Origin: Arcuatula senhousia
Taxonomy: Eukaryota > Mollusca > Bivalvia > Mytilida > Mytilidae
DNA: 64,000 nucleotides
Direction of reading: 5' to 3'
Assembly (NCBI GenBank): GCA_963971305.1
Contig: OZ020306.1
Location: forward strand, 4,208,842-4,272,841
The notes beneath the pieces are model-generated. The model did not search any database, was not told where the DNA came from, and saw only the letters and a program-made list of their open reading frames with translations. Positions within the stretch are counted from its first letter, which is position 1; every line of letters starts with the position of its first letter. Shown piece by piece: positions 9,729-62,270 of this stretch. Made by a program: the position numbers and the translations under genes.

Positions 9729-10326
9729 TAAATTTTCATAGTCATACATAAAAGTTATAAGATCTGGATCATCATACAAATCAAAAATATCTAATAATGA
9801 TTCATCAGGTTTCACAAAATCTGTCAAATTACTTGTTTTAGCATTAAAGTCACCTAGAAGACAAATTTTTTCACCAGATTTATAAAAATCAAACATTTCA
9901 GATTCTATCTCAGTAAAAGCCTCATCTGATGCATACTTAGTATTTTCTGGAGGAATATAAATACAGCCTAATAATAGATCAAATTTTAACCTATTACTTT
10001 TCATTCTCATCCATAAAACAAAATCTGAATCAGAATCTAAGAATTCAATGATTTCATTTAAAGAACTTTTATAAACAATAATGAGACCACCTGATTTTTT
10101 TGAACATTTCTTTCTATGTTTTGCCTTAGAATAATATTCTTCAGGCAAATCTAACTTATCATAAATATCAGTTTTTGTTTCTTGAAATAAAAGTATATCA
10201 TAACTCTTAATAAATAACAAAAAATCTGGATTTAACAACTTTGATTTAAGTCCACAAACATTCAGACAGCATATTTTCAGTTTATTTAAATGACAAAATT
10301 CTTTATTTAAAGTACATTTTTTCTCT
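9729..10326 (-). pseudogene. L1-like LINE ORF2, first part: N-terminal endonuclease
   Basis: The minus frame opens after a TAG near 10326, just behind ORF1. It reads C-C-L-N-V-C-G-L (the usual endonuclease start), L-L-F-Q-E-T (catalytic Glu) and C-L-L-G-D-F-N-A-K-T (catalytic Asp/Asn), all typical of apurinic endonucleases of LINEs. The frame then runs into the composite insertion at 9728. The remainder of the endonuclease and the RT are at 4596-6619. Confidence 0.85.
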
Positions 10327-10340
10327 CTATCCCGCCTGTC

Positions 10341-18206: not shown

Positions 18207-18371
18207 TCAAGAGGCAGTAGTACGTAGTTTTTTGTTGGAATCCTCAGAATCAATGTCCATAACTTCTTGGATTGACACAGCAGGGCCGACATATTGCAGA
18301 AGAGGATTCTGGGATTGACTACCAAAGAGAGTTGTTAATAAAGCTACTCCATATCCTGTCGCTCTTTCACC
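18207..18371 (-). CDS. NPEPL1: NPEPL1 coding exon 12 (residues 465-518 and stop)
   Basis: G-E-R-A-T-G-Y-G-V-A-L-L ... N-P-L-L ... D-S-N-K-K-L-R-T-T-A-S, then TGA at 18209-18207. The K-K-x-R tail parallels the basic tail of vertebrate NPEPL1. Confidence 0.93.
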   Translation of the reverse strand, partial: GERATGYGVALLTTLFGSQSQNPLLQYVGPAVSIQEVMDIDSEDSNKKLRTTAS

Positions 18372-21300: not shown

Positions 21301-24300
21301 GGACTTTCTTGATCCATGGGTTTGTATTTTTTGTGAGGTTATAAATGTCGTATGCTAGACTGTTTATATTATTAATTAAATGATTATAAAATCCTAAAAT
21401 TGCAGAGCTTATTTTACTTGTGATGGGTAATCTAGCTAATTCTGCTCGACACGCATCATTAGAAGTTTTACAATGAACTCCAAGAATTTCTTTAATGAAT
21501 TTGATATGGAACTTTTCAATAAAATTTGATGTATCATTTTTAAGAGAAAAATCTATGCCCCAAATTTCACAACAATAAAGTAAAATAGGAGAAACAAGAG
21601 AGTCAAATAGTTTTTCTAGGAGTCTACAGGGATTATTGAGACCAACACATTTTTTAATCTTAAAATATGCTTTTCTTGCTTTATCGATTAAAATATCGAT
21701 TGCAGCATTAAAATTACCATTATCTTTCATAGATATTCCCAAATAAGTATATTCAGTTACAGTCTCAATTACAGAATTATTAAAATTGAATGCATTTTTG
21801 AATGTTTTACCATTTGAGTTAAATACTAATACTTTTGATTTTTCTGTATTTACTTCAAGTTTCCATGATTTGCAGTAGGACTCTAAATTATTCAGACAAT
21901 TTTGTAAACCTAAATCACTTTCTGACAATAAAACAATGTCATCAGCATATAGGAGTATATTAAAAGAGGAGTTACCAATGACCACTGGATCAGTATTGGG
22001 CTGATTTAAATGATTAACCAAATCATTTATAAAGAAATTAAACAGAATAGGGCTCAGCACATCTCCTTGCTTAACCCCACGTTCAGATATACAGCTTTGA
22101 CTTAAACCGTTTCCAAATTTTATTCGATATAATGTATCAGTATACATTGAAATAAGAATCCTAGAAATTTTAGGAGGAAAATTTTTCTGAAGAATCTTAT
22201 AAAAAAGACCTGTCCTCCAAACAGTGTCAAATGCTTTCCGCAAATCAATGAAAGCAGCAAAAACTTTTTTATGCTTAAGTTTTTTTGTATCGATAATTGA
22301 TTTTAATGTAAAAATATGATCAGATGTTCGGTGGTTACATTTATAATTCAGAGTTTGATTGGATTTTAAGTTAATTTTTATGGGTAAGTTAGTAAATTAA
22401 GCATCTTTCGAAAGGATTAGTGTAATGCTTTTTTTGTTTTTCTAAAAAGGAAAGGAAATATGTCTAGAGTTCAACAAGTTACTAAGAGTTAACATTCATT
22501 TAGCATAAGTTCAACTCTTTTCAAAAGGCTAGTAAATAATTTAGGTTTCGTTTTCTTGGCTATGTTAGAATACCTAGAAAATTCTTTATTAAATATCTCA
22601 AAAGTGTCTAAATGTTTTGTTCTAAGTTCCGAAAGACAAAAAGATTTATAAATAGAAAAACCAAGGATAGAAAGGATGACATTAAAGTCAGAGTAGTTCT
22701 TGTCTTGTATCTTATACCCTATTACAAAGTGTACAAGACTTATTTCCCTGTTAAAGCTCAGCTTTTTAAAAATAATATTAACTTTTTCCCATAAATTTTG
22801 TAACAGCTTACATCTAACAAACAAATGTTCATAATTATCAATTTCATTGCAAAAGGGACACATAGGAGTTTGTGTTATATGCCATATAAAAAGTTTTTCT
22901 TGGCAAGATAAAATATTGCTCATAAGCTTCCATCGGAAGATCTTTAAGTTGTTTAGTAATAAATTTTCATGAAAAAATAAGAAGCATGCATTGTGCTTAG
23001 CATCACTGGGTGCACTTAACTTTCATAGTTGACAGCCAGTAAGTAATCATCAATGTCCTGCTCTGATGTGACAATAACTTACTTGACCTGTCATTTTGAA
23101 GCACTTGTAAAGTACCTAGCATTAGCCTAATCCCTTGCTCATTAACGATAGAAGAAGAAGAAGTATGTCTCACCTGCAGACAATATTGGAATATTTATTC
23201 CTTGTTAATTCCTCCATCTAACATGAATTAATAGACAATTAGGGAACATAAAACTATAATTTCTAAAATACCAAAAGCAATAAAAATCCATAAGGATACT
23301 CACTGGTCTTGTTTTTGTATTTCTGTCATTTTTTTGGAATCCTCTGGTTTTTACCATCAAAAGAAGGTTAAAATTTTTGCCCACAAACCCCAATTTTCTT
23401 GTTATTAATGTCTTTAATGTCATTTATCTTGAAAATGAGGTCACAAACCTATCAATTTTTTTTCTTATTTTATACCATTTACTAATATCTTTTCATTTAA
23501 GGTATCAAATTTGAACCTTGTTTATTTTCAATGATGGTAGCTAGCATCCTTAAAGGTCATTCATGCTCAACTAAAAACCCCAGCTGGTCAAGGTCAAAAG
23601 TCGAAGAGTCTAGCTCTGATGCAAAACATATCAAGGTTAATCAACCTAGGATTTATAGTTCCTGAGATATGGAGGTGCTAAAAAAACTTTATGCATTGAA
23701 AATTGTTATTGTGCAATTTCTAAATACCTAATAATTTTAAAAAATTAGAAATTAAACAACTATGAAATTCAGGATTTAATGACTCTATACATTTCTAGAC
23801 ATTGATGATTATTATACACTTTGTACCTGTATCTGGTTTTTGAAAACAGATCCTCACTTAATTAGTTTTAATGTTTTGTGCTATTTCTAGAAACATCAAC
23901 TTACAGAATATGCTGGTGCAGCCATATCAATATGTAGCCACATCCCTGGGTAGGTAAATCCTAAGTGTGATCCTATAAATAGCCCAGCACAGGAAACTTG
24001 GGCATTACTTCTGTCCTACAATTAGAAAGGTGTGATCCTATAAATAGCCCAGCACAGGAAACTTGGGCATTATTTCTGTCCTAAAATTAGAAAGATGAGA
24101 TCCTATAAATAGCCCAGCACAAGAAACTTGGGCATTACTTCTGTCCTACAATTAGAAAGGTGTGATCCTATAAATAGCCCAACACATGAAACTTGGGCAT
24201 TACTTCTGTCCTATAATTAGAAAGGTGTGATCCTATAAATAGCCCAGCACAGGAAACTTGGGCATTATTTCTGTCCTAAAATTAGAAAGATGAGATCCTA

Positions 24301-27300
24301 TAAATAGCCCAGCACAGGAAACTTGGGCATTACTTCTGTCCTACAATTAGAAAGGTGTGATCCTATAAATAGCCCAACACATGAAACTTTGGCATTACTT
24401 CTGTCCTATAATTAGAAAGGTGTGATCCTATAAATAGCCCAGCACAGGAAACTTGGGCATTACTTCTGTCCTAAAATTAGAAAGGAGACATCTCATATAT
24501 AACCCAACACAGGAAATCAAAGCATTACTTGACTTACCTGACGTCAGCCTTTTACACTTCCCAGCATCTTCATTATTTTTTGTTCTATGTACAGCATTTC
24601 TCCATGTCAGAGTAGCTATTTTTGACCTAAAAAGGGCCATAACCCCAGTAATGGAGTATTTGACAAATTCAACCCAAAGGAGAATTTTGCAAAGCTTTTC
24701 ATTCTGAAGAGCCTAGGGATGTGAATAAAAGTTACACTGCTAGGACTTCACAATGGAATGAGAAGCTTTAATAAAAATATGGAAAGCAAATTTTGAGCAT
24801 ACATCAATAGAAAGCCAACTTTTTCAGCTCTTTAAAATTACAGACAGTTAAGACAAATTAATAATCAGTAAACATAAACAATCCATTGAATGAACAAACA
24901 AACATTTGACTTGTAGAGCTGAGACGGTATTGTCTTTTCTAAGTGCACTCTTAAGGTAGATCGGGTGTCTAAAAAGTTATCCATAGAATTTTCTTAAATT
25001 TTAACCACAGTTAGTCCTAGACTGGTACTTTAAATCTCGTTAAAAGAATTAAAACTTCACCACGAGAATTTTTGTAGAAACAACTTTGAAAAATGGATGA
25101 TTTCAGTACTTTTTATATAGGACCAACAGGGAAATTTCAAATTTCTTTTACCTAAAAAAAATCCACTCCATAGATTTTTCTTTAAATTTTTGAAAATCTT
25201 TGTTTTCGACGTATTTTTAAATATAGTAAATAAAAAATAAAGTTCACCATCAAAATTTTTGAAAAAAGTGAAAAATGTGTTTTTTCCCTTATATTTCTAT
25301 ATAAATTATCTCCCCTTGAAAAGTACTGGAAAATATTGAAAGTCGCAAAGAAGGTGTATTTAACCCTAATTTTTGTTGTAATTACCAATTTTAATGTTTA
25401 CCTAGCACGATAGAAATCAATTAGAATAACAAGCATTATAAATTCTAAAGTTATGATAGATGTGCAAAAAAGATGCTCAGTAATAGACACCCCATCTACC
25501 TTAAGGTATGATTACTGTTTTAAAAAAAAACATCATTTTACTTTGTGTAAAAACTTAAATTAACCACTCTTTTCAAAAAATGAAATTCAGTAATTATCCT
25601 CCTTTGTATACAATCACTTATTTAATCGTTCAAAATTAAAATCACAAAAATAAACGATAAAGAGATGTGGAATAAGTGTCAATTCAAACATCACAATGGA
25701 AAACAGCCAGCCATCTTCAACATGACCAGAGGTCACTGCTCACTGTCTTGCATTGGCCCAAGATTAAAAATACAATACATAAGATTCAAACAAATCCCTA
25801 GATTATCAACGAAAGACACATTTCTGAAGATAGAACAAAGAACAGATAGTTGACAGGGACAAACAAAAGCTTTGACAAAGATTCCTGGCTTAGGACAGGC
25901 ACATATAAAATGTGGCGGGGTTAAACTAGTTTTTGGGCCCAACCTTCTTTAAAAACCTACTTTATCTTCTAAAAGATTCAAAATTTTATAATAAATGCAT
26001 AAAATATTCACATTATCATCAGAATTACCATAAATAACAATGGGGGACCCCACTGTACCTATTTTAAGCCATAAGTAAACTGTTACCCACATCCTTAGAT
26101 CCTTCAGATTTTTTCTATCCTTTATGGTTGCTGAGTTATAAGCCATTTTAAGTGATTTACCATATGTTTTATTTTAATTAACAGCAGCCATATTTTAATC
26201 AAATCTTTTCAAAATGAGGATCGTTTGTTGCCAACATGCCATGACTCATTCCTGCAAGGTTTAAGTTTGATTGGTTCAGTGAATTTATAGGAGAATGTTT
26301 TATAAATTCTTTATGGACATGGACCACAGACGAGTCACAACAATAAACAATGACAACAAACTCATAGTGATGGCATAAGCAAATATATAGTGAAGCCTAT
26401 GCCAGATTGTTTTAAATGTGGTTATTATCAGGCTCAAAATCATTGGAGGCATTTTTTTTTGGTGGATTTTATGAAAAACAAAAAAATGTGTCAAACAGAC
26501 ACGGTGCCCTGCCTTTAAATTTATCAAACAGCTAAACAACTTTTTTTTTCCAGATCGTTATTTCCATTTCTTTTGCTATATTGGCTAATTTCTTGCCCAA
26601 TACATGGTTCTGAGTACCTATTCTAATACAAATACAATACAAATACAAATTTTTATTAGCCAATTATGGGCACACAAAGGGTTCCCAGAATTGGGATAGC
26701 AGATCAAATATTTCAACAGGAAAGCATGAATTGATATTTTTTATAGGGTAGTGCGGAATGTGACCCCCTCCTAACCCCCTCCCCCTTTAGTGCACAGCAA
26801 TACCAATCCCTGATTTGAATAATAACTTACAGCTACAGAGTTTTTCATGTCAGCCACTGAGCTGGAAAATTCACTATAGTGTAACTCTGGAGAATATGGT
26901 ACTGGGTGAACAAGGTCCCCAGATATTCTTCCTGCACTGACACAAGCCAATTCTAAATCTTCGTTGTTTGTCAATATACTGGCATGGTATTTACCTAAAC
27001 ATAGAGACACAGAATAAGCTATACACAGAGACAGGATATTTACCTAAACATATAAACATGGTATTCACCTAACCATGTTTAGAGAATATGGTACATGGTA
27101 TTACATTCTCCTGCCTGCCGGCCTTACATTCAAAATTTTATAACCCAGATTTTTACTATTTGAAATCTGGCCAAGACTCAACCAGTTTGATGAATTAAAG
27201 TTTTGAACTTAAGCAGCTGATAAATGGACATTTGCTTCCCAAAAAATGTGTGTGGTTCCATTTTTTAATTACTATGGTTTCATTATTCACTGGCTTATAA

Positions 27301-30300
27301 GATAAACTTAGGATACCTGTGGCTATTCCCTGCGCTCCTGTCAACGTCGCCATATCAACAATTATATCCGCTTTCAGGTCCTTCCTTGCATAGGCCACCT
27401 ACATAAAATAAAGTACAAACTAGAAATACTGTGAGCTCACAAATAAATACCACCACCCCTCCCATTTGCTATGGGAAATCCCAAAAATCATTCTGATCAA
27501 ATTTAAAATGGTAGGTGCACATCTAAATTATGTCACAAAGATTGTCTGTAGGTTTCAGGAAATCCTATCAAGGGGTTTAGGACGAGTTGCGGATAAGAGA
27601 TTGGTACCCTGAAGTGAAACGGAAGGACAGACGGACACCCCTATCACTATATACCCCCCACTTTTCAAGTGGGGGGTATATTAATAAATCCCTTGAAACA
27701 GAACCTAGAGTAAGAAAACTAATTAGAACTCACAATCTAACAAGAGGCTCCCAGAAGCCTGAATGAAATGCCTGAATTTTAGGACATATGGCAAAAAGTT
27801 CACAACTTTATTGACATTTAAATCACCATGAACTGTCATCGATTACCTTAATGCAATTAAGTGTAAAGCTCTATTAGTTGATCATTTTAGCTATCAAAGC
27901 TTTTTATTATTGTCTGCAGTCTGCCAGCTATAAGACATAAACAGTTATATATATAAACATTTAAAGGATTATAACTCCTATAAGAAGTCAATTAAAAAAC
28001 ACATCATATCAAGTTTTTGTAGGGCTTTACTAACTTTACAATATTATAATTGAAAGATTTTTCTAGCTTTTCCAGTTTGCAATTCAATGCAGGGAAATGC
28101 TGTGACAAAAGTCAATTTCCACATTCTAAGGGGAATAACTCCCAAAAGGAATGGTCATACAACTTTGACCCTGTTAATTTTTTTGTAGATCTTAAAGTGC
28201 TTAACAACTATCTTGTAAACTTTTTTAAGATAGTGCGTTAAATTAGTGCAAAGTTTGGATAAAATCAAGACAAAGGGCAATAACTCCTAAGATCCTGGTA
28301 AGATTTTCTTCAAATTTTCACGGCAGGTAGATTGAGAGGTACAGCACACTTTTGCATCCTATCAGAATTATGATATCTGTCACTGTTTTTGAGTTATTTG
28401 CAAAAAAATTACAATTTACCTTATGTTCTATTTTTAGCGAGAGCAGCCATATTTTTCAACAAATCAAAAATCCAATGAATAATATCTACCACACATACTA
28501 ATAAACAGCTATACCAAGTTTGATTGCAATTAAACCTATGGTGTCTGAGGAGTTAACTATTTTAATATAATGAGGAAAAGTTGTAACAAGAGTTAACACT
28601 AAAGTATGTCTCGCCTGCCGGCACCATCAGAAACAATTATTCTTTCTTACTTCTACTATATTTTGAATTTACATGGATTTTCAGTTCCTGAGATCAAAAG
28701 ATGTTTATAGAACTTAAACATTGCAAATATACGCAATAAAAATAATCAAAGTCACTCAACCGGAAAATCAAGGTCAAGGTCAAAAGATGGGGATGCAACT
28801 GTGCTAAGCTACTACTGGGGCATATGTATACCAAGTTTTATCAACCTAGGACCTATAGTTCTTGAGATATGGATGTGCTCGCAAAACTTTTCAATTGCTA
28901 TTATATGTATTGAAAATTGTCAAAGTCACTCAACCAAAAAATCAAGGTCAAGGTCAAAAGATGGGGATGCAACTGTGGTAAGCTACTACTGGGGCATATG
29001 CATACCAAGTTTCATCAACCTAGGATCTATAGTTCTTGAGATATGGAGGTGCTCGCAAAACTTTTCCATTGCTATTAGATGTATTGAAAATTGTCAAAGT
29101 CACTCAACCGGAAAATCAAGGTCAATGTCAAAAGATGGGGATGCAACTGAGCTAAGCTACTACTGGGGCATATGCATACCAAGTTTCATCAACCTAGGAC
29201 CTATAGTTCTTGAGATATGGAGGTGCTCGCAAAACTTTTTCATTGCTATTATATGTATTGAAAATTGTCAAAGTCATTCAACCGGAAAATCAAGGTCAAG
29301 GTCAAAAGATGGGGATGCAACTGTGCTAAGCTACTACTGGGGCATATGCATACCAAGTTTCATCAACCTAGGATCTATAGTTCTTGAGATATGGAGGTGC
29401 TCGCAAAACTTTTCCATTGCTATTATATGTATTGAAAATTGTCAAAGTCACTCAACCGGAAAATCAAGGTCAATGTCAAAAGATGGGGATGCAACTGAGC
29501 TAAGCTACTACTGGGGCATATGCATACCAAGTTTCATCAACCTAGGACCTATAGTTCTTGAGATATGGAGGTGCTCGCAAAACTTTTTCATTGCTATTAT
29601 ATGTATTGAAAATTGTCAAAGTCATTCAACCGGAAAATCAAGGTCAAGGTCAAAAGATGGGGATGCAACTGTGCTAAGCTACTACTGGGGCATATGCATA
29701 CCAAGTTTCATCAACCCAGGACCTATAGTTCTTGAGATATGGAGGTGCTCATAAAACTTTTCCAAAAAGTTAACGCCGCCGTCGCCGCCGTCGTCGCCGC
29801 CGCCGGTAAAGTAACACCTATGTCCCGCTCTGCTTCGCAGGCGAGACAAAAATGGTAAGTTTTTATGTTCTAGGGGGATAACTCTTAAAAGGAACAATCC
29901 TACAACTTTGCCCTGTTACATCATTTATATTTCTTGATGTACTGAACAATATGGAATTTAAATTCTCAAATATTTCTTCTATGGTTTTCAAGATATTGGG
30001 CTAAATAAGTGCAAAAATTGGAAAAAAAATCAGAAAAAGGGCAATAACTCCTACATTGGTTATTGGATCTTCTTCAAAATTTCAGGGCAGGTAGAACTTG
30101 AAGTGCTAATCTCTTTAACTTTTCCAGAATTGTGATATCTGTGACCATTTTTGAGTTATTAATTTTATCCATATGTTTTATTTTTAGCCATTGCAGCCAT
30201 TTTTTTTTATGATTCAAAAATCCAAACAATCGTTTTGAAGCAACCATACCAATTAACAACTTAACCAAGTTCGGTTACAATAGTTTATTTGCAAATTAGC

Positions 30301-54300: not shown

Positions 54301-57300
54301 CTTACCACAAAGTACCTTCAATCATATTTGACTGTGCTTACCACTAAGTACCTTCTATCATAGTTAACTTACCACTAAGTACCTTCTATCATAGTTGACT
54401 TACCACTAAGTACCTTCTATCATATTTGACTTACCACTAAGTACCTTCTATCATATTTGACCTACCACTAAGTACCTTCTATCATAGTTGACTTACCACT
54501 AAGTACCTTCTATCATAATTGACTGTGCTTACCACTAAGTACCTTCTATCATAGTTAACTTACCACTAAGTACCTTCTATCATAGTTGACTTACCACTAA
54601 GTACCTTCTATCATATTTGACTTACCACTAAGTACCTTCTATCATATTTGACCTACCACTAAGTACCTTCTATCATAGTTGACTTACCACTAAGTATCTT
54701 CTATCATATTTGCCTTACCACTAAGTACCTTCTATCATATTTGACCTACCAATAAGTACCTTCTATCCTATTTGACTGACCACTAAGTAGTACCTTCTAT
54801 CATATTTGACTTACCACTAAGTATCTTCTATCATATTTGACTATGCTTACCACTAAGTATCTTCTATCATAATTGACTTACCACTAAGTACCTTCTATCA
54901 TATTTGACCTACCACTAAGTATCTTCTATCATATTTGACTTACCACAAAGTATCTTCTATCATATTTGACTATGCTTACCAATAAGTACCTTCTATTATA
55001 TTTGACTTACCACAAAGTACCTTCTATCATATTTGACTTACCACTAAGTACCTTCTATCATATTTGACTTACCACTAAGTACCTTCCATCATATTTGACT
55101 TACCACTAAGTACCTTCTATCATATTTGACCTACCACTAAGTACCTTCTATCATAGTTGACTTACCACTAAGTACCTTCTATCATATTTGACTTACCACT
55201 TGGTACCTTCTTTTCATATTTGACTTACCACTAAGTACCTTCTATCATATTTGACCTACCACTAAGTACCTTCTATCATAGTTGACTTACCACTAAGTAC
55301 CTTCTATCATATTTGACTTACCACTAAGTACCTTCTATCATAGTTGACTTACCACTAAGTACCTTCTATCATATTTGACTTACCACTAAGTACCTTCTAT
55401 CATATTTGACTTACCACTAAGTAACTTCTATCATATTTGACTTACCACTAAGTACCTTCTATCATATTTGACCTACCACTAAGTACCTTCTATTCATATT
55501 TGACTAACCACTAGGTACCTTCTATTATATTTGACTGTGCTTACCACTAAGTACCTTCTATCATATTTGACTTACCACTTAGTACCTTCTATCATATTTG
55601 ACCTACCACTAAGTACCTTCTATCATATTTGACTTACCACTTAGTACCTTCTATCATATTTGACTTACCACTTAGTACCTTCTATCATATTTGACTTACC
55701 ACTAAGTACCTTCTATCATATTTGACTTACCACTAAGTACCTTCTATCATATTTGACTTACCACTAAGTATCTTCTATCATATTTGACTATGCTTACCAA
55801 TAAGTACCTTCTATCCTATTTGACTTACCACTTAGTACCTTCTATCAAATTTGACTTACTCATGTTACTACTAAGTACCTTCTATCATAGTTGACTTACC
55901 ACTAAGTACCTTCTATCATATTTGACTTACCACTAAGTACCTTCTATCATATTTGACCTACCACTAAGTACCTTCTATCATATTTGACCTACCACTAAGT
56001 ACCTTCTATCATATTTGACTTACCACTTAGTACCTTCTATCATATTTGACTTACCACTAAGTACCTTCTATCATTTTTGACTTACCACTAAGTATCTTCT
56101 ATCATATTTGACTATGCTTACCACTAAGTACCTTCTATCATATTTGACTATGCTTACCACTAAGTACCTTCTATCATATTTGACCTACCACTAAGTACCT
56201 TCTATCATATTTGACTATGCTTACCACTAAGTACCTTCTATCACAGTTGACTTACCACTAAGTACCTTCTATCATATTTGACTTACCACTAAGTACCTTC
56301 TATCATATTTGACTTACCACTAAGTACCTTCTATCATATTTGACCTACCACTAAGTACCTTCTATCATAGTTGACTTACCACTAAGTAAATTCTATCATA
56401 TTTGACTTACCACAAAGTACCTTCTATCATATTTGACAATGCTTACCACTAAGTACCTTCTATCATATTTGACTTACCACTAAGTACCTTCTATCATATT
56501 TGACCTACCACTAAGTACCTTCTATCATATTTGCCTTACCACTAAGTACCTTCTATCATATTTGACCTACCACTAAGTATCTTCTATCATATTTGACTTA
56601 TCACTAAGTACCTTCTATCATATTTGACCTACCACTAAGTACCTTCTATTCATATTTGACTTACCACTAGGTACCTTCTATCATATTTGACTTACCACTA
56701 AGTACCTTCTATCATATTTGACTTACCACTAGGTACCTTCTATCATATTTGACTTACCACTTAGTACCTTCTATCATATTTGACTTACCACTAAGTACCT
56801 TCTATCATATTTGACCTACCACTAAGTACCTTCTATTCATATTTGACCTACCACTAAGTACCTTCTATCATATTTGACCTACCACTAAGTACCTTCTATT
56901 CATATTTGACCTACCACTAAGTACCTTCTATTCATATTTGACTTACCACTAGGTACCTTCTATCATATTTGACTTACCACTAAGTACCTTCTATCATATT
57001 TGACTTACCACTAAGTACCTTCTATCATATTTGACCTACCACAAAGTACCTTCTATTCATATTTGACCTACCACTAAGTACCTTCTATCATATTTGACTT
57101 ACCACTAAGTACCTTCTATCATATTTGACCTACCACTAAGTACCTTCTATCATAGTTGACTTACCACTAAGTATCTTCTATCATATTTGACCTACCACTA
57201 AGTATCTTCTATCATATTTGACCTACCACTAAGTACCTTCTATCATATTTGACTTACCACTAAGTACCTTCTATCATATTTGACCTACCACTAAGTACCT

Positions 57301-60300
57301 TCTATCATATTTGACTTACCACTAAGTACCTTCTATCATATTTGACTTACCACTAAGTACCTTCTATCATATTTGACTTACCACTAAGTACCTTCTATCA
57401 TATTTGCCTTACCACAAAGTACCTTCAATCATATTTGACAATGCTTACCACTAAGTATCTTCTATCATATTTGACTTATCACTAAGTACCTTCTATCATA
57501 GTTGACTTACCACTAAGTACCTTCTATCATATTTGACCTACCACTAAGTACCTTCTATCATATTTGACTTACCACTAAGTACCTTCTATCATATTTGACT
57601 TACCACTAAGTATCTTCTATCATATTTGACTTACCACTAAGTACCTTCTATCATATTTGACTTACCACTAAGTACCTTCTATCATATTTGCCTTACCACA
57701 AAGTACCTTCAATCATATTTGACAATGCTTACCACTAAGTACCTTCTATCATATTTGACTTATCACTAAGTACCTTCTATCATATTTGCCTTACCACAAA
57801 GTACCTTCAATCATATTTGACTGTGCTTACCACTAAGTACCTTCTATCATAGTTAACTTACCACTAAGTACCTTCTATCATAGTTAACTTACCACTAAGT
57901 ACCTTCTATCATAGTTGACTTACCACTAAGTACCTTCTATCATATTTGACTTACCACTAAGTACCTTCTATCATATTTGACCTACCACTAAGTACCTTCT
58001 ATCATAGTTGACTTACCACTAAGTACCTTCTATCATAATTGACTGTGCTTACCACTAAGTACCTTCTATCATAGTTAACTTACCACTAAGTACCTTCTAT
58101 CATAGTTGACTTACCACTAAGTACCTTCTATCATATTTGACTTACCACTAAGTACCTTCTATCATATTTGACCTACCACTAAGTACCTTCTATCATATTT
58201 GACTTACCACTAAGTACCTTCTATCATATTTGACTTACCACTTAGTACCTTCTATCATATTTGACTTACCACTTAGTACCTTCTATTCATATTTGACTAA
58301 CCACTAGGTACCTTCTATTATATTTGACTGTGCTTACCACTAAGTACCTTCTATCATATTTGACTTACCACTTAGTACCTTCTATCATATTTGACCTACC
58401 ACTAAGTACCTTCTATCATATTTGACTTACCACTTAGTACCTTCTATCATATTTGACTTACCACTTAGTACCTTCTATCATATTTGACTTACCACTAAGT
58501 ACCTTCTATCATATTTGACTTACCACTAAGTACCTTCTATCATATTTGACTTACCACTAAGTATCTTCTATCATATTTGACTATGCTTACCAATAAGTAC
58601 CTTCTATCCTATTTGACTTACCACTTAGTACCTTCTATCAAATTTGACTTACTCATGTTACTACTAAGTACCTTCTATCATAGTTGACTTACCACTAAGT
58701 ACCTTCTATCATATTTGACTTACCACTAAGTACCTTCTATCATATTTGACCTACCACTAAGTACCTTCTATCATATTTGACCTACCACTAAGTACCTTCT
58801 ATCATATTTGACTTACCACTTAGTACCTTCTATCATATTTGACTTACCACTAAGTACCTTCTATCATTTTTGACTTACCACTAAGTATCTTCTATCATAT
58901 TTGACTATGCTTACCACTAAGTACCTTCTATCATATTTGACTATGCTTACCACTAAGTACCTTCTATCATATTTGACTCACCACTAAGAACCTTCTATCA
59001 TATTTGACTTACCACTAAGTACCTTCTATCATATTTGACTTACCACTAAGTAACTTCTATCATATTTGACTTACCACTAAGTACCTTCTATCATATTTGA
59101 CTTACCACTATTTACCTTCTATCATATTTGACTTACCACTAAGTATTCCTCTCCACCTTTGACACAACTTTTGACCAGTTTGGTAAGTGCATGGGATCTT
59201 GATGGTGTATTGTGACGACTGCATTTAACTGGAAGCTGAGCCAAAGTAGCATTATTCAACCACAAGGAGCATATGTCAGCATTAGATGCCAAAGCTTTCT
59301 TAAAAGTCTGAAATAAAAAAAAGTAAATACTGTTAACTACATTTAACATAGAAACTTCAGCACAATCAGTACTTCCTACTGTTTCTCTCATATCATACAT
59401 GTCAAAGCTAATACTTCCTACAGTTTCCCTCATATCATATGTGTCAAAGCTATTACTTCCTACTGTTTTTCTCATATCATACATGTCAAAGCTATTACTT
59501 CCTACAGTTTCCCTCATATCATATGTGTCAAAGCTAATAATTCTTACTGTTTCCCTCATATCATACATATCAAAGCTATTACTTCCTACAGTTTTCCTCA
59601 TATCATACATATCAAAGCTATTTCTTCCTACTGTTTCCCTCATATCATACATGTACATATCAAAGCTATTTCTTCCTACTGATTCCCTCATATCATACAT
59701 ATCAAAGCTATTTCTTCCTACTGATTCACTAATATCATACATATCAAAGCTATTACTTTCTACCATTTCCCTCTTATCATACAAATCAAAGCTATTACTT
59801 CCTAATGTTTCCCTCATATCATACATGTCAAAGCTATTACTTCCTACAGTTTTCCTCATATCATATGTATCAAAGCTATTACTTCCTACAGTTTTCCTCA
59901 TATCATACATGTCAAAGCTATTACTTCCTACTGTTTCCCTCATATCATACATGTCAAAGCTATTACTTCCTACAGTTTTCCTCATATCATATGTATCAAA
60001 GCTATTACTTCCTAAAGTTTCCCTCATATCATCTTGTCAAAGCTATTACTTCCTACTGTTTCCCTCTTATCATACAAATCAAAGCTATTACTTCCTAATG
60101 TTTCCCTCATATCATACATGTCAAAGCTATTACTTCCTAAAGTTTCCCTCATATCATCTTGTCAAAGCTATTACTTCCTACTGTTTCCCTCATATCATAC
60201 ATGTCAAAGCTATTACTTCCTACAGTTTCCCTCATATCATACATGTCAAAGCTATTACTTCCTACTGTTTCCCTCATATCATACATGTCAAAGCTATTAC

Positions 60301-62270
60301 TTCCTACAGTTTCCCTCATATCATACATGTCAAAGCTATTACTTCCTACTGTTTCTCTCATATCATACATGTCAAAGCTATTACTTCCTACTGTTTCTCT
60401 CATATCATACATGTCAAAGCTATTACTTCCTACTGTTTCTCTCATATCATACATGTCAAAGCTATTACTTCCTACAGTTTCCCTCATATACATATCAAAG
60501 CTATTACTTCCTACTGTTTCCCTCATATCATACATGTCAAAGCTATTACTTCCTACAGTTTCCCTCATATCATACATATCAAAGCTATTACTTCCTACTG
60601 TTTCTCTCATATCATACATGTCAACGATATTACTTCCTACTGTTTCCCTCATATCATACATGTCAAAGCTATTACTTCCTACAGTTTACCTCATATCATA
60701 CATGTCAAAGCTATTTCTTCCTACAGTTTCCCTCATATCATACATGTCAAAGCTATTACTTCTTACTGTTTCCCTCATATCATACATGTCAAAGATATGA
60801 CTTCCTACTGTTTCCCTCATATCATACATGTCAAAGCTATTACTTCCTACAGTTTCTCTCATATCATACATGTCAACGCTATTACTTCCTAGTTTCCCTA
60901 ATATCATCTTGTCAAAGCTATTACTTCCTACTAATTCCCTCATATTATACTTGTCAAAGCTATTCCCTCATATCATATGTGTCAAAGCTATTACTTCTTA
61001 CTGTTTCCCTCATATCATACATGTCAAAGCTATTACTTCCTACAGTTTCCTTCATATCATACATATCAAAGCTATTACTTCCTACTGTTTCTCTCATATC
61101 ATACATGTCAAAGCTATTACTTTCTACTGTTTCTCTCATATCATACATGTCAAAGCTATTACTTCCTACTGTTTCTCTCATATCATACATATCAAAGCTA
61201 TTACTTCCTACTGTTTCTCTCATATCATACATGTCAAAGCTATTACTTCCTACTGTTTCTCTCATATCATACATGTCAAAGCTATTACTTCCTACTGTTT
61301 CTCTCATATCATATGTGTCAAAGCTATTACTTTCTACTGTTTCCCTCATAGCATACATATCAAAGCTATTATTTCCTACTGTTTCTCTCATATCATACAT
61401 GTCAAAACTATTATACAATTATAGCTTAAGTATGAGGTCTATACAAGAATATATCGCCAAACAGATCCTTATTGACCAATAACCGAGTTCGAGGTCAATA
61501 TGCATAGATCTGTTAGCCAAAATATTCTTGTGTTGACTGAACCAAAAGCTATACATGTAATCTGTAGCTTAGACAGATATTCTCACTTGACTTCAATGTC
61601 AGAGTACTATATCTTAGACAGATATTCTTACTTGACTTTAACATGTTTAACTTCAGAGTACTGTATCTTAGACAGATATTCTAACTTGACTTAAACGTCA
61701 GAGTACTATATCTTAGACAGATATTCTCACTTGACTTCAATGTCAGAGTACTATATCTTAGACAGATATTCTTACTTGACTTTAACATGTTTAACTTCAG
61801 AGTACTGTATCTTAGACAGATATTCTAACTTGACTTCAACTTCAGAGTACTATATCTTAGACAGATATTCTCACTTGACTTTAACTTCAGAGTACTGTAT
61901 CTTAGACAGATATTCTAACTTGACTTCAACTTCAGAGTACTATATCTTAGACAGATATTCTCACTTAACTTTAACTTCAGAGTACTGTATCTTAGACAGA
62001 TATTCTCACTTGACTTTAACTTCAGAGTACTGTATCTTAGATAGATATTTACCTCTTCATTGACTCTGGGTTCTAACTTGACTTTAACTTCAGAGTACTG
62101 TATCTTAGATATATATTTACCTCTTCATTGACTCTGGGTTCTAACTTGACTTTAACTTCAGAGTACTGTATCTTAGACAGATATCGAGGTTGTCCAATTA
62201 TAGTCACAGCATTTTTCTCAGGGTCCGACTTAGACAAGGAACTAGAATACTGTAAAACTGCAGCAACCAT
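18207..62270 (-). CDS. NPEPL1: NPEPL1, probable M17 leucyl aminopeptidase (12 coding exons)
   Basis: Joined exons give 1557 nt, 518 aa plus stop, against about 523 aa for vertebrate NPEPL1. M17 peptidases are di-metal exopeptidases that release N-terminal residues, usually as cytosolic hexamers. Conserved stretches include R-V-N-E-E, C-S-R-H-N-T-P-S, G-I-R-L-A-A-K-I-V-D, V-G-K-A-A-V-N-P-P-A-L, G-K-G-I-V-F-D-T-G-G, M-K-R-D-C-G-G-A-A, N-N-T-D-A-E-G-R-L and M-A-T-L-T-G-A-Q-G-I-A-T-G. Metal ligands and catalytic residues are K253, D258, K265, D276, D335, E337 and R339. Their spacing equals that of bovine LAP (K250, D255, K262, D273, D332, E334, R336). The N-terminal domain and S-R-H-N block separate it from LAP3. 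Every intron is GT-AG and phases agree across all joins. No stop, frameshift or lost residue is seen, so the gene looks functional despite 40 kb of intronic repeats. Confidence 0.95.
18755..19015. repeat. Cluster of CCATGG palindromes
   Basis: About 25 copies of TCCATGGA-type palindromes joined by AT, AAT or AAAAC spacers, e.g. TTCCATGGAATTCCATGGAA. Each unit equals its own reverse complement, so the block has no strand and can fold in many registers. A smaller, more decayed cluster lies at 19860-20010. A pearl-like 5' start (GTGCCAAACAGACAAAG) directly precedes it at 18720. Confidence 0.85.
19860..20010. repeat. Second, degraded CCATGG palindrome cluster
   Basis: Eight or so CCATGG or near-CCATGG palindromes, more diverged than 18755-19015, with mutated copies such as CCATTGAATCCATGG. 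Confidence 0.7.
20756..22390 (-). pseudogene. 5'-truncated LINE: reverse transcriptase and C-terminal zinc motif
   Basis: The open frame extends upstream of the first Met to about 22390 (C-N-H-R-T-S-D-H-I-F-T-L, normally in the RT fingers). It then has F-A-A-F-I-D-L-R-K-A-F-D (block A), G-V-K-Q-G-D-V-L-S-P, the Y-A-D-D active site (about 21945) and, near the C-terminus, C-P-I-C ... H-F-L-F-Y-C (zf-RVT type). The stop is at 20756. The 3' end carries an AATTGA-type repeat tail at 20610-20640. No internal stop is seen, so it is a fairly young but 5'-truncated copy. Confidence 0.85.
22486..22975 (-). pseudogene. C-terminal end of another LINE ORF2 (zf-RVT region)
   Basis: The open frame reads F-R-W-K-L-M-S-N-I-L ... 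M-C-P-F-C-N-E ... E-H-L-F-V-R-C ... L-W-E-K-V. This is the C-x2-C ... H-x4-C zinc motif that follows the RT in many L1/Tx1-like LINEs. Truncated at the 5' side close to the 22981 target duplication, as expected from abortive reverse transcription. Confidence 0.75.
23905..24015 (-). CDS. NPEPL1: NPEPL1 coding exon 11 (residues 428-464)
   Basis: D-R-S-N-A-Q-V-S-C-A-G-L-F-I-G-S-H ... P-G-M-W-L-H-I-D-M-A-A-P; donor GTAAGT, phase 0. The first half with its acceptor is repeated eight times upstream in intron 10. The copy at 24015 is assigned because only it is contiguous with the second half of the exon. Confidence 0.93.
24016..24545. repeat. 65-bp array copying the exon 11 acceptor and exon start
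   Basis: Eight tandem copies, starting within exon 11 itself (23964). Each holds (minus strand) CTAATTGTAG, then GACAGAAGTAATGCC and on to GGATCACAC: the last ~14 bases of the intron and the first ~51 of the exon. Alternate units share markers (T/C in TGTCCTA(C/A)AAT, CACAGG/CACATG), showing higher-order amplification of two- or three-unit blocks. Confidence 0.93.
24951..25504. mobile_element. TTAA-bounded MITE, copy 2 (different TIR)
   Basis: Starts TTAAGGTAGATCGGGTGTCT and ends with the inverse AGACACCCCATCTACCTTAA (one mismatch). AT-rich, non-coding, 554 bp, in NPEPL1 intron 10. Confidence 0.75.
25505..26830. other. Rest of NPEPL1 intron 10
   Basis: Contains a short pearl-like 5' start near 26486 (TGTGTCAAACAGACACGGTG) and a 'TACAAATACAAATTTTTATT' stretch at 26625-26660 that may be a LINE 3' tail. 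Nothing else recognised. Confidence 0.4.
26831..26994 (-). CDS. NPEPL1: NPEPL1 coding exon 10 (residues 373-427)
   Basis: Acceptor ATGTTTAG, then GTAAATACCATG: the exon itself begins with GT. Encodes K-Y-H-A-S-I-L ... G-D-L-V-H-P ... V-A-D-M-K-N-S-V-A; donor GTAAGT, phase 0. Two diverged copies of the acceptor follow in the 322-bp intron 9. Confidence 0.95.
26995..27316. repeat. NPEPL1 intron 9 with two extra copies of the exon 10 acceptor
   Basis: On the minus strand, ATGTTTAG/GTAAATATCCTG lies at about 27035-27053 and CATGGTTAG/GTGAATACCATG at about 27057-27077. Both match the true exon 10 junction ATGTTTAG/GTAAATACCATG at 26983-27002. Confidence 0.75.
27317..27398 (-). CDS. NPEPL1: NPEPL1 coding exon 9 (residues 346-372 plus 1 nt)
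   Basis: V-A-Y-A-R-K-D-L ... D-M-A-T-L-T-G-A-Q-G-I-A-T, split Gly before GTATCC (phase 1). This loop lines the substrate pocket in M17 enzymes. Confidence 0.95.
28581..29850 (+). mobile_element. Pearl-like element with 174-bp dimeric tandem core
   Basis: Begins GTTAACACTAAAGTATGTCT, then CGCCTGCCGGCACC; ends TTCGCAGGCGAGAC, the inverse of the start GTCTCGCCTGC. The core (28745-29755) has about 5.7 copies of a 174-bp unit, alternating in two variants (ACCTATAG/ATCTATAG and AAGGTCAAGGTC/AAGGTCAATGTC). A GCC/GTC microsatellite precedes the 3' end. The long open frame here results from unit length being a multiple of 3. Confidence 0.75.
30278..30482. mobile_element. Short MITE with ~55-bp terminal inverted repeats
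   Basis: The left arm runs from CAATAG through AATCGATTTAATTTTAC; the right arm is the inverse with a few mismatches. About 205 bp in all, nested in the 27738-30617 element. Confidence 0.75.
30903..30957 (-). CDS. NPEPL1: NPEPL1 coding exon 8 (residues 327-345)
   Basis: Contains N-T-D-A-E-G-R-L, the M17 active-site signature with ligands D335 and E337 and catalytic R339. Donor GTAGGA, phase 0. At 55 bp it is the shortest exon. Confidence 0.95.
31340..32323 (+). mobile_element. Nested pearl-like element with five 158-bp repeats
   Basis: Starts AAATGTGTCAAGATGACACT, then GATGCCCCGC. It has five-plus copies of a ~158-bp unit (GTGCGGAAAACTT ... GGACCGGAACG ... ATGGTAGACTC), then GTGTGACGGACGGACGGACC, and ends in a hairpin GCCCCCCAACAAAGTTGGCG followed by GGGCATAAAAA. 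Confidence 0.8.
32478..32766 (+). mobile_element. Nested short pearl-like element
   Basis: From GGGGCATGTAATGGGATATT to a terminal hairpin ATACCCTGCCAC/GTGGCTGGGTAT followed by AAAA, with GGGGACGGACGGACAGACA before it. One body unit only. Confidence 0.65.
32776..33765 (+). mobile_element. Nested complete pearl-like element, same family as its host
   Basis: Starts CTAGAGGCTCCCAGGAGCCT. It has two ~470-bp body repeats (AGTTATAAGCCAAAAACAAT and TTTCAGAGAAGAAGAT in each), then CGGACGGACGACGGACG, and a perfect 13-bp-stem hairpin at 33731-33759 with loop TTC, followed by TAAAAA. Confidence 0.75.
33893..34437. mobile_element. TTAA-bounded MITE, copy 3 (same family as 12057-12585)
   Basis: TTAAGGTTCATCTGTACCTT at the left, inverse AAGGTACAGATGAACCTTAA at the right. 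The paralogous body repeats at about 33000 and 33500 show the uninterrupted site (TCTCTTATACTTTTCGAGTT), so the target carried a single TTAA-like tetramer that is now on both sides. Confidence 0.85.
34678..35270 (+). mobile_element. Pearl-like element with duplicated 3' terminus
   Basis: About three ~160-bp units (GTGCGGAAAACTG ... ACTCATCA ... AAAAATCAGTTCATT), then GTGTGACAGACGGACGGACA. Two consecutive copies of the 3' end follow: CTATAGTCCCCTTC(A/G)GC, TTTCGCCGGTAGG(G/A)GACTA (35190-35228 and 35229-35270). Confidence 0.7.
35513..35613 (-). CDS. NPEPL1: NPEPL1 coding exon 7 (residues 294-326 plus 2 nt)
   Basis: G-F-K-E-N-L-H-A-V-L-C-L-A-E-N ... R-P-D-D ... Y-S-G; ends in two bases of the Leu327 codon before GTAAGT (phase 2). 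A degraded second copy of the acceptor and exon start lies at 35656-35703. Confidence 0.95.
35656..35703. repeat. Degraded copy of the NPEPL1 exon 7 acceptor region
   Basis: Matches 35587-35630 (exon 7 start plus polypyrimidine tract) at most positions: GCATTTAAATTCTGTTTAAA against GCATGTAAATTCTCTTTAAA. The AG of the acceptor is mutated, so it should not splice. Confidence 0.7.
35885..37143 (+). mobile_element. Pearl-like element with ~145-bp tandem units
   Basis: Starts AATATGTCCAACAGACATAA, then TGCCCCATC. It has five to six units (GTCATTCATGCGGAAAATAT ... GCATTGTGCTTAGCATCAC ... GTGCACCTACCATACCAATA), then GGGACGGACGGAC, and ends GCCCCTCTACTTTCTGAGGC, GGGGCATCAA. The LINE block at 20215 interrupted another member of this family. 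A partial 5' end of a different pearl family is at 35700-35880. Confidence 0.75.
37144..37475 (+). mobile_element. 3' fragment of the pearl-like family seen at 6897 and 44327
   Basis: Shares TTTTGTCAATTCACCCGTTT, AACGGTAGGGGCCACAAACC and the end TTGCAGTCGTATAAAAAT with the other copies. 5' part missing. Confidence 0.7.
37507..37584 (-). CDS. NPEPL1: NPEPL1 coding exon 6 (residues 268-293)
   Basis: 26 codons between CAG and GTAAAA, phase 0; contains M-K-R-D-C-G-G-A-A with metal ligand D276. Confidence 0.95.
37640..37930. repeat. ~58-bp tandem repeats in NPEPL1 intron 5
   Basis: Five copies of a unit with GGTTCATAAAGGACTATAAT and TGGCCC(C)TGTCAATGAGC. Two more diverged units lie at 39603-39675. 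Confidence 0.75.
38371..38410. repeat. Single diverged unit related to the 42-bp satellite
   Basis: AACAGAGGTACCAATGGGG, then TATCTGAATG, matches the minus-oriented satellite unit AGAGAGGTACCAATGGGGCA, then TTTGAATGA (14493-17455). It sits at the downstream edge of the reverse transcriptase remnant at 38440-38760. Confidence 0.55.
38440..38760 (-). pseudogene. Degraded reverse transcriptase remnant with R-Y-I-D-(D) block
   Basis: In broken frames: S-Y-E-A-D-F-L-Q-S-L-L, then S-F-N-L-T-F-R-Y-I-D followed by a 2-nt deletion in the catalytic D-D. It continues V-L-S-L-N-N-S-R-F-D-D, E-L-E-I-K-D-T-K-D-S and S-A-S-Y-L-D-L-H-L-E-I-D. This block is a common reverse-transcriptase type in invertebrate genomes (I believe Penelope-like, not certain). 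The lost catalytic residue and further 3' decay make it dead. Confidence 0.65.
38761..39930. other. Unassigned repeat-derived sequence in intron 5
   Basis: Body fragments of pearl-like families (GGGATCATCTGACAACTTTG at 39586) without clear ends. No gene seen. Confidence 0.4.
39932..41338. mobile_element. Probable TIR element split by pearl-like insertions
   Basis: Left end CAGTTACACCGGTGAAGCTC, then AACGCGAATTAATTCTC; the right end is the inverse of CAGTTACAGTTAGCTCAACG, CCAATTAGTTCTC. An inner pair (GTGGTGTTACATCGTGATTC at 39985 and its inverse near 41235-41275) adds support. Between them lie a pearl-like 3' end (40030-40572, GGTCAGGTGAGCTAAAA) and a ~185-bp-unit element (40573-41155) ending in a GTCTCGC/GCGAGAC hairpin. 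Confidence 0.4.
41368..41510 (-). CDS. NPEPL1: NPEPL1 coding exon 5 (residues 220-267, catalytic)
   Basis: Acceptor CTTTTAG, completes split Gly220, then L-F-N-V-G-K-A-A-V...; ends I-K-T-K before GTAAGT (phase 0). Carries metal ligands K253 and D258 and catalytic K265. The acceptor and first 15 exon bases are repeated in the upstream intron. Confidence 0.95.
41511..42265. repeat. 36-bp array copying the exon 5 acceptor
   Basis: About 21 copies. Each holds (minus strand) AACTAAC (branch-point-like), TTTTGTCTTTTAG (polypyrimidine tract and AG) and GATTGTTCAATGTAG, the first 15 bases of exon 5. The first seven or so units next to the exon are exactly 36 bp; farther units vary (35, 32 bp). Confidence 0.95.
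42765..43853 (+). mobile_element. Pearl-like element with ~145-bp repeats and a long ACGG/ACGT microsatellite
   Basis: Seven copies of a unit with TAGTATCCAAGTTATGGACC, AAAATATAGGTCACAGTGAC and GGTGGTGTCA. Then GTTACGGACGGACGTACGGA and further ACGG/ACGT units (43752-43805), then a 3' hairpin CGATCCACATACGTGGTCGG followed by GCCATAAAA. A textbook pearl layout. Confidence 0.8.
43972..44053 (-). CDS. NPEPL1: NPEPL1 coding exon 4 (residues 193-219 plus 1 nt)
   Basis: E-V-S-S-V-G-K-E-L-G-I ... D-E-R-G-F-G, then one base of a split Gly codon before GTATAT (phase 1). Confidence 0.93.
44327..45295 (+). mobile_element. Pearl/Helentron-like element, copy 2 of the 6897 family
   Basis: Start ATGTCAATAAAAAGCTACG and end GCGGTTGTATAAAAAT as at 6897-8520, but one internal duplication shorter. 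Lies in NPEPL1 intron 3. Confidence 0.75.
45588..45842 (-). CDS. NPEPL1: NPEPL1 coding exon 3 (residues 108-192)
   Basis: 85 codons, I-V-C-E-K... to ...G-R-F-L-E, donor GTAATT, phase 0. Contains V-T-V-E-Y-L-L-V and A-A-K-I-V-D-I-P-C-N, the hinge into the catalytic domain. The largest coding exon. Confidence 0.95.
45843..47027. other. First part of NPEPL1 intron 2, exon 3 side
   Basis: 45843-46210 shows nothing recognisable. 46212-46715 is a 5' pearl fragment (CTAGAGGCTCCCAGGTGCCT). 46716-47025 is a 5' fragment of the GTCTCGCCTG family. The satellite then begins abruptly. Confidence 0.5.
47028..59136. repeat. 12.1-kb satellite of 31-bp units copying the exon 2 splice donor
   Basis: Roughly 390 tandem copies. 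On the minus strand each unit carries TACTTAGTG/GTAAGTC, identical to the last 9 bases of exon 2 and its donor at 59137. AAATATGATAGAAGG then follows. Variants: GTAGGT (from CCTACCAC), GTAAGC (37-bp units with ATGCTTACCAC), and donor-dead GTCAGT or GTTAGT forms. Three 92-93-bp non-repeat spacers (47828, 49721, 50499) and multi-kb higher-order blocks are embedded. No coding function. Confidence 0.97.
59137..59307 (-). CDS. NPEPL1: NPEPL1 coding exon 2 (residues 51-107)
   Basis: Acceptor TTTTTATTTCAG, then T-F-K-K-A-L...; ends E-E-Y-L-V before GTAAGT, phase 0. Contains the C-S-R-H-N-T-P-S signature of NPEPL1. Its donor is the seed of the 12-kb satellite. Confidence 0.95.
59390..61415. repeat. 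42-bp array in NPEPL1 intron 1
   Basis: About 48 copies of a unit with TGTCAAAGCTATTACTTCCT and ACTGTTTCCCTCATATCATA. 42 is divisible by 3 and stops are rare, so several frames on both strands stay open for hundreds of codons. The array ends about 75 bp before the exon 2 acceptor, which is not part of the unit. I see no protein-like features. Confidence 0.95.
61560..62120. repeat. 45-bp array copying the coding end and donor of NPEPL1 exon 1
   Basis: Next to exon 1 there is one 68-bp duplicate containing the exon end and donor (GAAGAG/GTAAATAT at 62047-62058). It is followed by about 11 units of 45 or 54 bp that repeat only exon codons 30-44 (CTGTCTAAGATACAGTACTC, TGAAGTTAAAGTCAAGTTAG on the minus strand). 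Confidence 0.93.
62121..62270 (-). CDS. NPEPL1: NPEPL1 coding exon 1 (residues 1-50)
   Basis: ATG at 62270-62268; ends ...R-V-N-E-E before GTAAAT (phase 0). The ATG is the first conserved Met and the protein then matches the family length. TTTTTTTATCAG just upstream (about 62275-62287) looks like an acceptor, so a non-coding 5' UTR exon probably lies farther upstream. The last ~47 nt plus donor are duplicated in the intron. Confidence 0.9.

What the first reader, a model, noticed from the sequence alone, without database searches (positions are those of the whole stretch)
23905..62270. Six splice junctions of one gene have each seeded their own tandem array
In NPEPL1, copies of the gene's own exon-intron junction lie next to that junction at exon 1 donor (61560-62120), exon 2 donor (47028-59136), exon 5 acceptor (41511-42265), exon 7 acceptor (35656-35703), exon 10 acceptor (27035-27077) and exon 11 acceptor (24016-24545). 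Each unit spans the boundary, and unit lengths differ (31, 36, 45/68, ~45, 65 bp), so this is not one invading satellite but the same event repeated at different junctions. Copy numbers from 1 to ~390 look like successive stages. I know of no described process that targets tandem duplication to splice sites; the nearest known idea is intron gain by tandem duplication of AGGT-containing exon segments. Possible routes: nick or R-loop repair at junctions, template switching, or bias because exon edges are conserved anchors.
Basis: partly seen in the sequence, partly recalled or inferred. Interest (0 to 1): 0.93.

Follow-up and report, generated by a model that had tools for sequence, protein, structure and literature searches.

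The report
Splice junctions copied into tandem arrays
In a mussel-like gene, short stretches straddling exon edges have been copied over and over into the neighbouring introns, and a sample of other genes in the same genome suggests such arrays gather at exon edges; similar cases, called mirages, are known from lancelets.

Summary
The minus strand carries a complete 12-exon NPEPL1 gene (518 codons, 11 GT-AG introns; best match Mytilus californianus, 86%). Six of its 22 junctions have junction-spanning copies in the adjacent intron; exon 2's donor is followed by 384 units of 31 bp. Two cases (exons 7, 10) are decayed, and most exon-1 units have lost the donor.

Among 257 junctions of 135 myosin, dynein and chaperonin exons, drawn by family and not by repeats, 9 of 26 local minisatellites span a junction; uniform seeding predicts 1.2 (P 5e-6; strict count 7, P 2.5e-4). 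Density falls from 0.91 per kb at junctions to 0.07 beyond 100 bp. Against this: P is 0.03 if long-period arrays count as seeds, and a base-by-base control shows no excess.

'No described process' is wrong: such minisatellites were named 'mirages' in amphioxus. Likely origin: small tandem duplications at exon edges, then unequal exchange. Copies show no sign of being kept for splicing. Why exon edges are hot is unknown.

The parts
18207..62270 (-). NPEPL1 gene (M17 aminopeptidase-like), 12 coding exons, 518 codons
   Evidence: exon map with GT-AG at 11 of 11 introns; Pfam PF00883 and PF18295; homologs
61568..62184 (-). array at exon 1 donor: two 68-bp units spanning the donor (one is the exon itself), then ten 45/54-bp units without it
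   Evidence: junction test P 0 of 2000
47029..59145 (-). array at exon 2 donor: 384 units of 31 bp, 9 exon bases + 22 intron bases
   Evidence: 98 of 98 exact genome hits of the unit lie here; internal structure
41496..42267 (-). array at exon 5 acceptor: 21 units of 36 bp holding CTAAC, a pyrimidine tract, AG and about 15 exon bases
   Evidence: junction test
35656..35703 (-). one decayed copy of the exon 7 acceptor region, AG lost
   Evidence: P 0.001
26983..27076 (-). decayed array at exon 10 acceptor, unit about 25 bp
   Evidence: TRF 67% match; P 0.010
23965..24516 (-). array at exon 11 acceptor: 8 units of 65 bp including the exon's own (14 intron + 51 exon bases), plus a decayed unit at the far end
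   Evidence: P 0 of 2000

Best explanation
These are 'mirages': minisatellites born by small tandem duplication of a segment that straddles an exon edge. Shown: the exonic part of the units is conserved coding sequence, so the exon came first; the arrays are local; they lie on the intron side; and at array level local minisatellites in the sampled exons are concentrated at and beside junctions, donors and acceptors alike. Inferred: the first copy comes from a small tandem duplication with almost no microhomology, most simply a staggered break whose two ends are filled in and joined; unequal exchange and segmental duplication then enlarge the array; selection keeps the exon copy and tolerates the rest because splicing still uses the exon-proximal site. 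The copies are by-products, not maintained splice sites. What makes exon edges prone to the first event (lesions linked to transcription or splicing, nucleosome edges, the base-composition step) is not shown.
For: Spanning copies at 6 of 22 NPEPL1 junctions. Sample: 9 of 26 local arrays span a junction against 1.2 expected (P 4.8e-6), and against the density of the 0-100 bp zone alone P 6e-4; densities 0.91 (spanning), 0.48 (0-25 bp), 0.15 (25-100), 0.064 (100-300), 0.069 per kb (>300); strict count 7, P 2.5e-4. Of 10 local arrays with >=95% match and unit >=20 bp, 7 span a junction (cut-off chosen afterwards), which points to birth rather than survival. The two fresh two-copy spanning cases, 25 and 103 bp, carry 1 bp over whole copies, as expected with little microhomology; small tandem duplications made that way at breaks with 3' overhangs are described in mouse cells (PMC8355091, passages). 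Intron-2 array: 48 consecutive units recur unchanged 110 units on. Splice dinucleotides in copies are no better kept than others: GT 362 of 384 (rank 14 of 30), AG 20 of 21 (rank 16 of 35), AG 8 of 8. Arrays that abut a junction without its splice site are enriched too (3 arrays at 0-25 bp).
Against: Base-level control: 243 of 6000 random intronic positions have a spanning copy nearby against 11 of 246 junctions (P 0.41); these controls include positions inside junction-born and dispersed arrays, and many-copy arrays count many times. Counting 15 long-period arrays as possible seeds raises expectation to 4.3 (P 0.03 for nine, 0.15 for seven); twice as many junctions gives P 9e-4 and 0.012. Decayed copies alone are not clearly in excess: 4 junctions against about 1.8 expected from 39 of 5431 controls outside arrays (product by hand). 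Two spanning cases and one donor were assigned by eye. The break model rests on two fresh duplications. No RNA, reads or population data.
Confidence: 0.55

Rival explanations
1. Chance: the introns are full of minisatellites, some fall on junctions, and this gene is an extreme case picked from many windows.
For: Base-level control shows no excess; 49% of this gene is array; P only 0.03 if long-period arrays count as seeds; the window was chosen for the feature.
Against: Array-level excess in exons drawn without regard to repeats (9 against 1.2); density falls tenfold within 100 bp of the junction; 14 of the 15 long-period arrays in the sample match other places and so are dispersed elements, not local seeds, while 21 of 23 local arrays tested match nowhere else in the sampled sequence.
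Confidence: 0.15
2. Persistence, not birth: duplications arise everywhere, but DNA beside exons is old and its exon copy is conserved, so duplications there last longer and stay recognisable.
For: Density declines with distance from the junction; one copy of each spanning unit is under purifying selection (inference).
Against: 7 of the 10 local arrays with >=95% match and unit >=20 bp span a junction, too young for survival to matter much; the 25-100 bp zone, also old sequence, has a sixth of the spanning density.
Confidence: 0.17
3. Selection for the copies: extra donors and acceptors help splicing (decoys, exon definition, U1 binding), so junction-spanning arrays are kept.
For: Most copies still hold intact splice dinucleotides: 362 of 384, 20 of 21, 8 of 8.
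Against: Other dinucleotides are kept equally well; ten of twelve exon-1 units lost the donor; arrays abutting a junction without its splice site are enriched as well.
Confidence: 0.07
4. Assembly artefact: the arrays are collapse or stutter errors.
For: No raw reads could be seen, so the copy number of the 12-kb array is unverified.
Against: Units carry graded divergence and internal order; units differ between junctions; similar arrays were found at nine other junctions.
Confidence: 0.03
5. One dispersed satellite or mobile element invaded the gene and happens to resemble splice sites.
For: Other arrays in these introns, with periods near 146-174 bp, do match other places.
Against: The exon-2 31-mer occurs only here (98 of 98); the NPEPL1 junction units match nowhere else in the sampled sequence; units contain this gene's coding sequence.
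Confidence: 0.01

Closest known systems
'Mirages': minisatellite-like tandem repeats spanning exon-intron boundaries in amphioxus (globins BflGb6 and BflGb9, PMC3087553; Adh3, TnC and PGBD5 as told in PMC3087553 and PMC3902484; passages read)
   Same: Tandem copies of a gene's own exon-intron boundary, at 5' and 3' boundaries, unit length differing from gene to gene, many but not all copies with AG/GT, homogenised within the array.
   Different: Here in a mollusc, six junctions of one gene, up to 384 copies (the cases read have up to 7), and a count of the excess over random placement. In amphioxus normal splicing was supported by RT-PCR and length instability was reported; neither could be tested here.
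[quoted passage not shown] potato RdRp PMC4974935, review PMC3443670; passages)
   Same: A tandem duplication; in the potato case it crosses an intron-exon boundary and copies the acceptor signals.
   Different: There a new intron results. Here the introns exist already and the copies stay inside them; whether any intron of this gene is new was not tested.
Small tandem duplications from fill-in at staggered breaks (CST, Pol alpha-primase, end-joining; PMC8355091, passages)
   Same: Duplications of tens of bp with little microhomology.
   Different: Induced with nickases in mouse cells; no tie to splice junctions in the passages read.
Dispersed tandem arrays of bivalve mobile elements (for example satellite-like repeats on Helentrons in oyster, PMC7492417, search listing only)
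   Same: Tandem arrays in bivalve genomes; the 146-174 bp arrays of this window and sample look like this sort.
   Different: The junction arrays are local, short-unit and made of the gene's own exon edge.

Membership tests
Mirages (exon-intron boundary minisatellites) | Tandem repeat unit contains the exon-intron boundary of the gene beside it | tested here: met
   Exons 2, 5, 10, 11 and the 68-bp units of exon 1; not met by ten of twelve exon-1 units
Mirages (exon-intron boundary minisatellites) | Both donor and acceptor boundaries affected | tested here: met
   NPEPL1 2 donors and 4 acceptors; sample 6 donors and 3 acceptors
Mirages (exon-intron boundary minisatellites) | Unit length and sequence particular to each boundary (reported 10-72 bp in Adh3, 150-160 bp in globins) | tested here: met
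   Units 25-68 bp in NPEPL1, 25-146 bp in the sample; no shared unit
Mirages (exon-intron boundary minisatellites) | Regular splicing not disturbed | not testable with these tools
   No RNA data; an intact reading frame results if the exon-proximal sites are used
Mirages (exon-intron boundary minisatellites) | Length instability between alleles and in somatic cells | not testable with these tools
   One assembly only; a 48-unit exact repeat at lag 110 units shows past growth
[quoted passage not shown]
   Intron positions of relatives were not available as gene structures
Dispersed satellite or mobile-element array | Unit found at unrelated places of the genome | tested here: not met
   31-mer: 98 of 98 hits in the window (whole genome); other NPEPL1 units: no match elsewhere in window plus 108 loci (a sample)
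Small tandem duplication by break fill-in | Little or no microhomology at fresh duplications | tested here: inconclusive
   1 bp over whole copies in the two fresh two-copy spanning cases L034 and L042; only two cases

The most novel reading that the evidence does not exclude
Exon-intron junctions are a germline hotspot for small tandem duplication in this bivalve, at donors and acceptors alike, through lesions linked to transcription or splicing. The same process made the amphioxus mirages, so it acts in distant animal lineages, has seeded thousands of arrays per genome, lengthens introns and supplies raw material for new introns.
Probability: 0.3. Interest if true: 0.85.

Novelty: new member of a known kind. 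Interest (0 to 1): 0.62.

Why it matters
If junctions really are duplication hotspots, mutation is not blind to gene structure: exon edges would be places where introns grow and splice sites multiply. That makes an open question (why boundary minisatellites arise and whether they feed intron gain) testable in a genome where 13 of 257 sampled junctions carry a spanning copy, four of them a decayed one. NPEPL1 exon 2 is also a natural test of how splicing picks one donor among hundreds of near-identical ones.

Tried and rejected
One search, a first junction test, let the query overlap its own target and was discarded; one search replaces it.

A satellite origin was rejected for exon 2 on the whole genome and for the other units on the sampled sequence. 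Selection on the copies was looked for and not found.

The base-level control shows no excess. I keep it as a negative result and rank the array-level test above it, because one many-copy array fills many base positions while it can hold a junction only at its end, and because the control positions include parts of junction-born arrays.

Assignments by eye: L046 and L101 counted as spanning although the TRF interval starts about 20 bp off; L020's donor added by hand. Left as not spanning: C5:58993950 (starts at +5), C9:2949631 (starts about 22 bp in), C5:58932632 (L021, abuts the acceptor), C5:59018612 (80 bp away). The donor predicted for L107 is probably about 30 bp off; its copies also hold the likelier site.

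Rows dropped: 135 exon matches allow 270 junctions; 256 had a predicted site above the score floor and one (L020) was added by eye. Matches used: PF00063 57 of 87, PF03028 36 of 36, PF00118 42 of 53 (left out: an intronless copy, one long open copy, and nine others not fetched to save letters). Two exons (in L074, L075) were fetched because arrays had been seen near them; both proved not spanning. 'Local' was set as period under 150 bp less three named dispersed arrays; two local arrays (L034 and C5:42031156) do match another place in the sample, and three with period 12 were not tested. PF00664 (70 matches) was meant as a fourth family; none was fetched.

Literature: searches are word searches of open-licence PMC papers whose listings I read; they showed no mollusc case of boundary minisatellites. 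Subscription papers are not held.

Full report
What the gene is. The minus strand of the window carries a complete gene for NPEPL1, an M17 aminopeptidase-like protein. Twelve exons join to an open frame of 518 codons with GT-AG at all eleven introns. Pfam gives the M17 catalytic domain and its second N-terminal domain; the best listed relative is Mytilus californianus NPEPL1 at 86% identity. The assembly has 1,036,387,356 bases in 1803 contigs and the window is C4:4208842-4272841. The host is thus a bivalve near the mussels; no record names it.

The six junctions. For each of the 22 junctions I took 20 bases either side and looked for a junction-spanning copy in the next 150 bp of intron, against 2000 random intronic positions outside arrays and exons. 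Exon 1 donor, exon 2 donor and the acceptors of exons 5, 7 and 11 reach P<=0.001, exon 10 acceptor 0.010, and the other 16 have P>=0.09. With a 500-bp reach e2, e7 and e10 fade to between 0.01 and 0.05. The exon-2 donor is followed by 384 units of 31 bp, 9 exon and 22 intron bases. The exon-5 acceptor is preceded by units of 36 bp (21 in the array), each a compact acceptor with a branch-site-like CTAAC, a pyrimidine tract, AG and about 15 exon bases. The exon-11 array has 8 units of 65 bp, 51 bases of each exonic, the exon's own unit included. At exon 1 the 68-bp unit spans the donor, but ten further units are like that unit less 23 bp with the donor gone. Exons 7 and 10 show only decayed copies.

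Exon first, array second. The exonic part of the units is coding sequence of a conserved protein, so the exon is the source (inference). The arrays are local: the exact 31-mer occurs 98 times in the genome, all here, and the other NPEPL1 units have no match elsewhere in the window plus 108 loci. Genome-wide searches for those other units did not complete.

Placement within this gene. Five of 15 short-unit arrays contain a junction, 0.455 expected (P 4.8e-5); with the six long-unit arrays, 5 of 21 against 1.33 (P 0.007). This window was picked for the feature, so a sample was needed.

The sample. I drew exons by protein family: myosin head (57 of 87 matches), dynein heavy chain (36 of 36) and TCP1 chaperonins (42 of 53). 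A splice-site finder that recovered 11 of 11 acceptors and 11 of 11 donors of NPEPL1 placed their junctions. In 226,643 bp with 257 junctions there are 41 arrays, 26 local and 15 long-period or dispersed; 14 of the 15 match other places, 21 of 23 local ones tested do not. Nine local arrays span a junction where uniform seeding predicts 1.2 (P 4.8e-6). By the strict rule (junction inside the TRF interval, with the L020 donor added by eye) it is 7, P 2.5e-4. Density per kb is 0.91 for spanning, 0.48 at 0-25 bp, 0.15 at 25-100, 0.064 at 100-300 and 0.069 beyond; against the 0-100 bp zone alone P is 6e-4. The cases: 63-bp units at a myosin donor (L020), an exact 25-bp duplication at another (L034), 103 bp at a dynein acceptor (L042), 56 and 104 bp at dynein donors (L046, L068), 88 bp at a chaperonin donor (L076), and at myosin exons 97 bp (L108, acceptor), 146 bp (L115, donor) and 72 bp (L101, acceptor). 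Four more junctions have a decayed spanning copy (L021, L079, L107, L116 donors), so 13 of 257.

What speaks against it. Base by base, random intronic positions have a spanning copy as often as junctions: 243 of 6000 against 11 of 246, P 0.41. This measure gives a many-copy array many votes and its controls include parts of junction-born arrays, so I rank the array-level test higher, but both are told. If the 15 long-period arrays are counted as possible seeds, expectation rises to 4.3 and P to 0.03, or 0.15 for the strict seven; with twice as many junctions P is 9e-4, or 0.012. Decayed copies alone are not clearly in excess (4 against about 1.8 from 39 of 5431 controls). NPEPL1 stands above the sample (6 of 22 against 13 of 257, P 0.0017), but it was picked for that. 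Three families are not the genome.

How it probably works. Of the ten local arrays with at least 95% match and units of 20 bp or more, seven span junctions (cut-off set afterwards), which points to birth more than survival. The two fresh two-copy spanning cases carry 1 bp over whole copies; that suits fill-in of a staggered break followed by end-joining, as described for small tandem duplications in mouse cells (PMC8355091, passages), better than slippage between long repeats. Two cases are few. In the exon-2 array 48 consecutive units recur unchanged 110 units on, a mark of segmental duplication, and of twelve bins from the exon outwards the first eight differ from the consensus by 0.8-1.1 bases per unit while three of the last four differ by 2.4-2.7 and one by 1.0. 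Splice dinucleotides in the copies are kept no better and no worse than others, so I see selection neither for nor against the copies. Arrays just outside a junction, without its splice site, are denser too, which favours place over function. Donors and acceptors are both hit (8 and 7 over NPEPL1 and the nine sample cases), which speaks against a purely U1- or 5'-based cause. Why exon edges are prone is open.

Known ground. Tandem repeats spanning exon-intron boundaries were described in amphioxus and named 'mirages': Adh3 (Canestro et al. 2002, not held; known here through citing papers), globins BflGb6 and BflGb9 with units of 150-160 bp at both boundary types (PMC3087553, abstract and passages), and PGBD5 and TnC (PMC3902484, passages). 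The globin paper calls the generating mechanism unclear and proposes mirages as a route to new introns. A potato gene shows a boundary-crossing tandem duplication that made a new intron (PMC4974935, passages). My word searches of the held library showed no mollusc case. I therefore file this as a new member of a known kind: another phylum, a far longer array than the cases I read, several junctions of one gene, and a first count of the excess.

Noticed in passing
59370-61413: A second array fills most of intron 1: about 49 copies of a 42-bp unit that does not contain a junction but ends 63 bp from exon 2.
   Followed up: partly
14507-17440: Large 42-bp-unit array downstream of the gene's stop codon, with an inner segment (16061-16565) in the opposite orientation; its unit matches two other places in the sampled sequence.
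   Followed up: partly
1-4000: GC-rich stretch (51% against about 34% beyond) with a 792-aa open frame (1266-3644, minus) without any Pfam match at E<=0.1, and a 32-bp array at 1019-1232.
   Followed up: partly
4596-6551, 9615-10340, 20756-22396: Reverse-transcriptase frames (RVT_1) and an endonuclease frame on the minus strand, LINE-like; the last lies in intron 11 of NPEPL1.
   Followed up: partly
28739-29764, 35976-36807, 40569-41070, 42812-43752: Arrays with periods of 146-174 bp that match other places in the sampled sequence, unlike the short-unit arrays; similar ones at 31449-32257 and 34700-35063 had no match in the sample.
   Followed up: partly
41511-41811: The 36-bp exon-5 unit is a multiple of three, and the last eight or so units read open in frame with exon 5, so use of an upstream acceptor copy would add 12-residue repeats instead of a frameshift.
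   Followed up: no
48001-62000: The intron 1 and 2 arrays give the gene's sense strand a G-over-C skew of about 0.5 over some 14 kb, a feature thought to favour R-loops (recalled, not tested).
   Followed up: no
13610-14457: Degenerate 21-bp array of about 40 copies (71% match) beside the 42-bp array.
   Followed up: no
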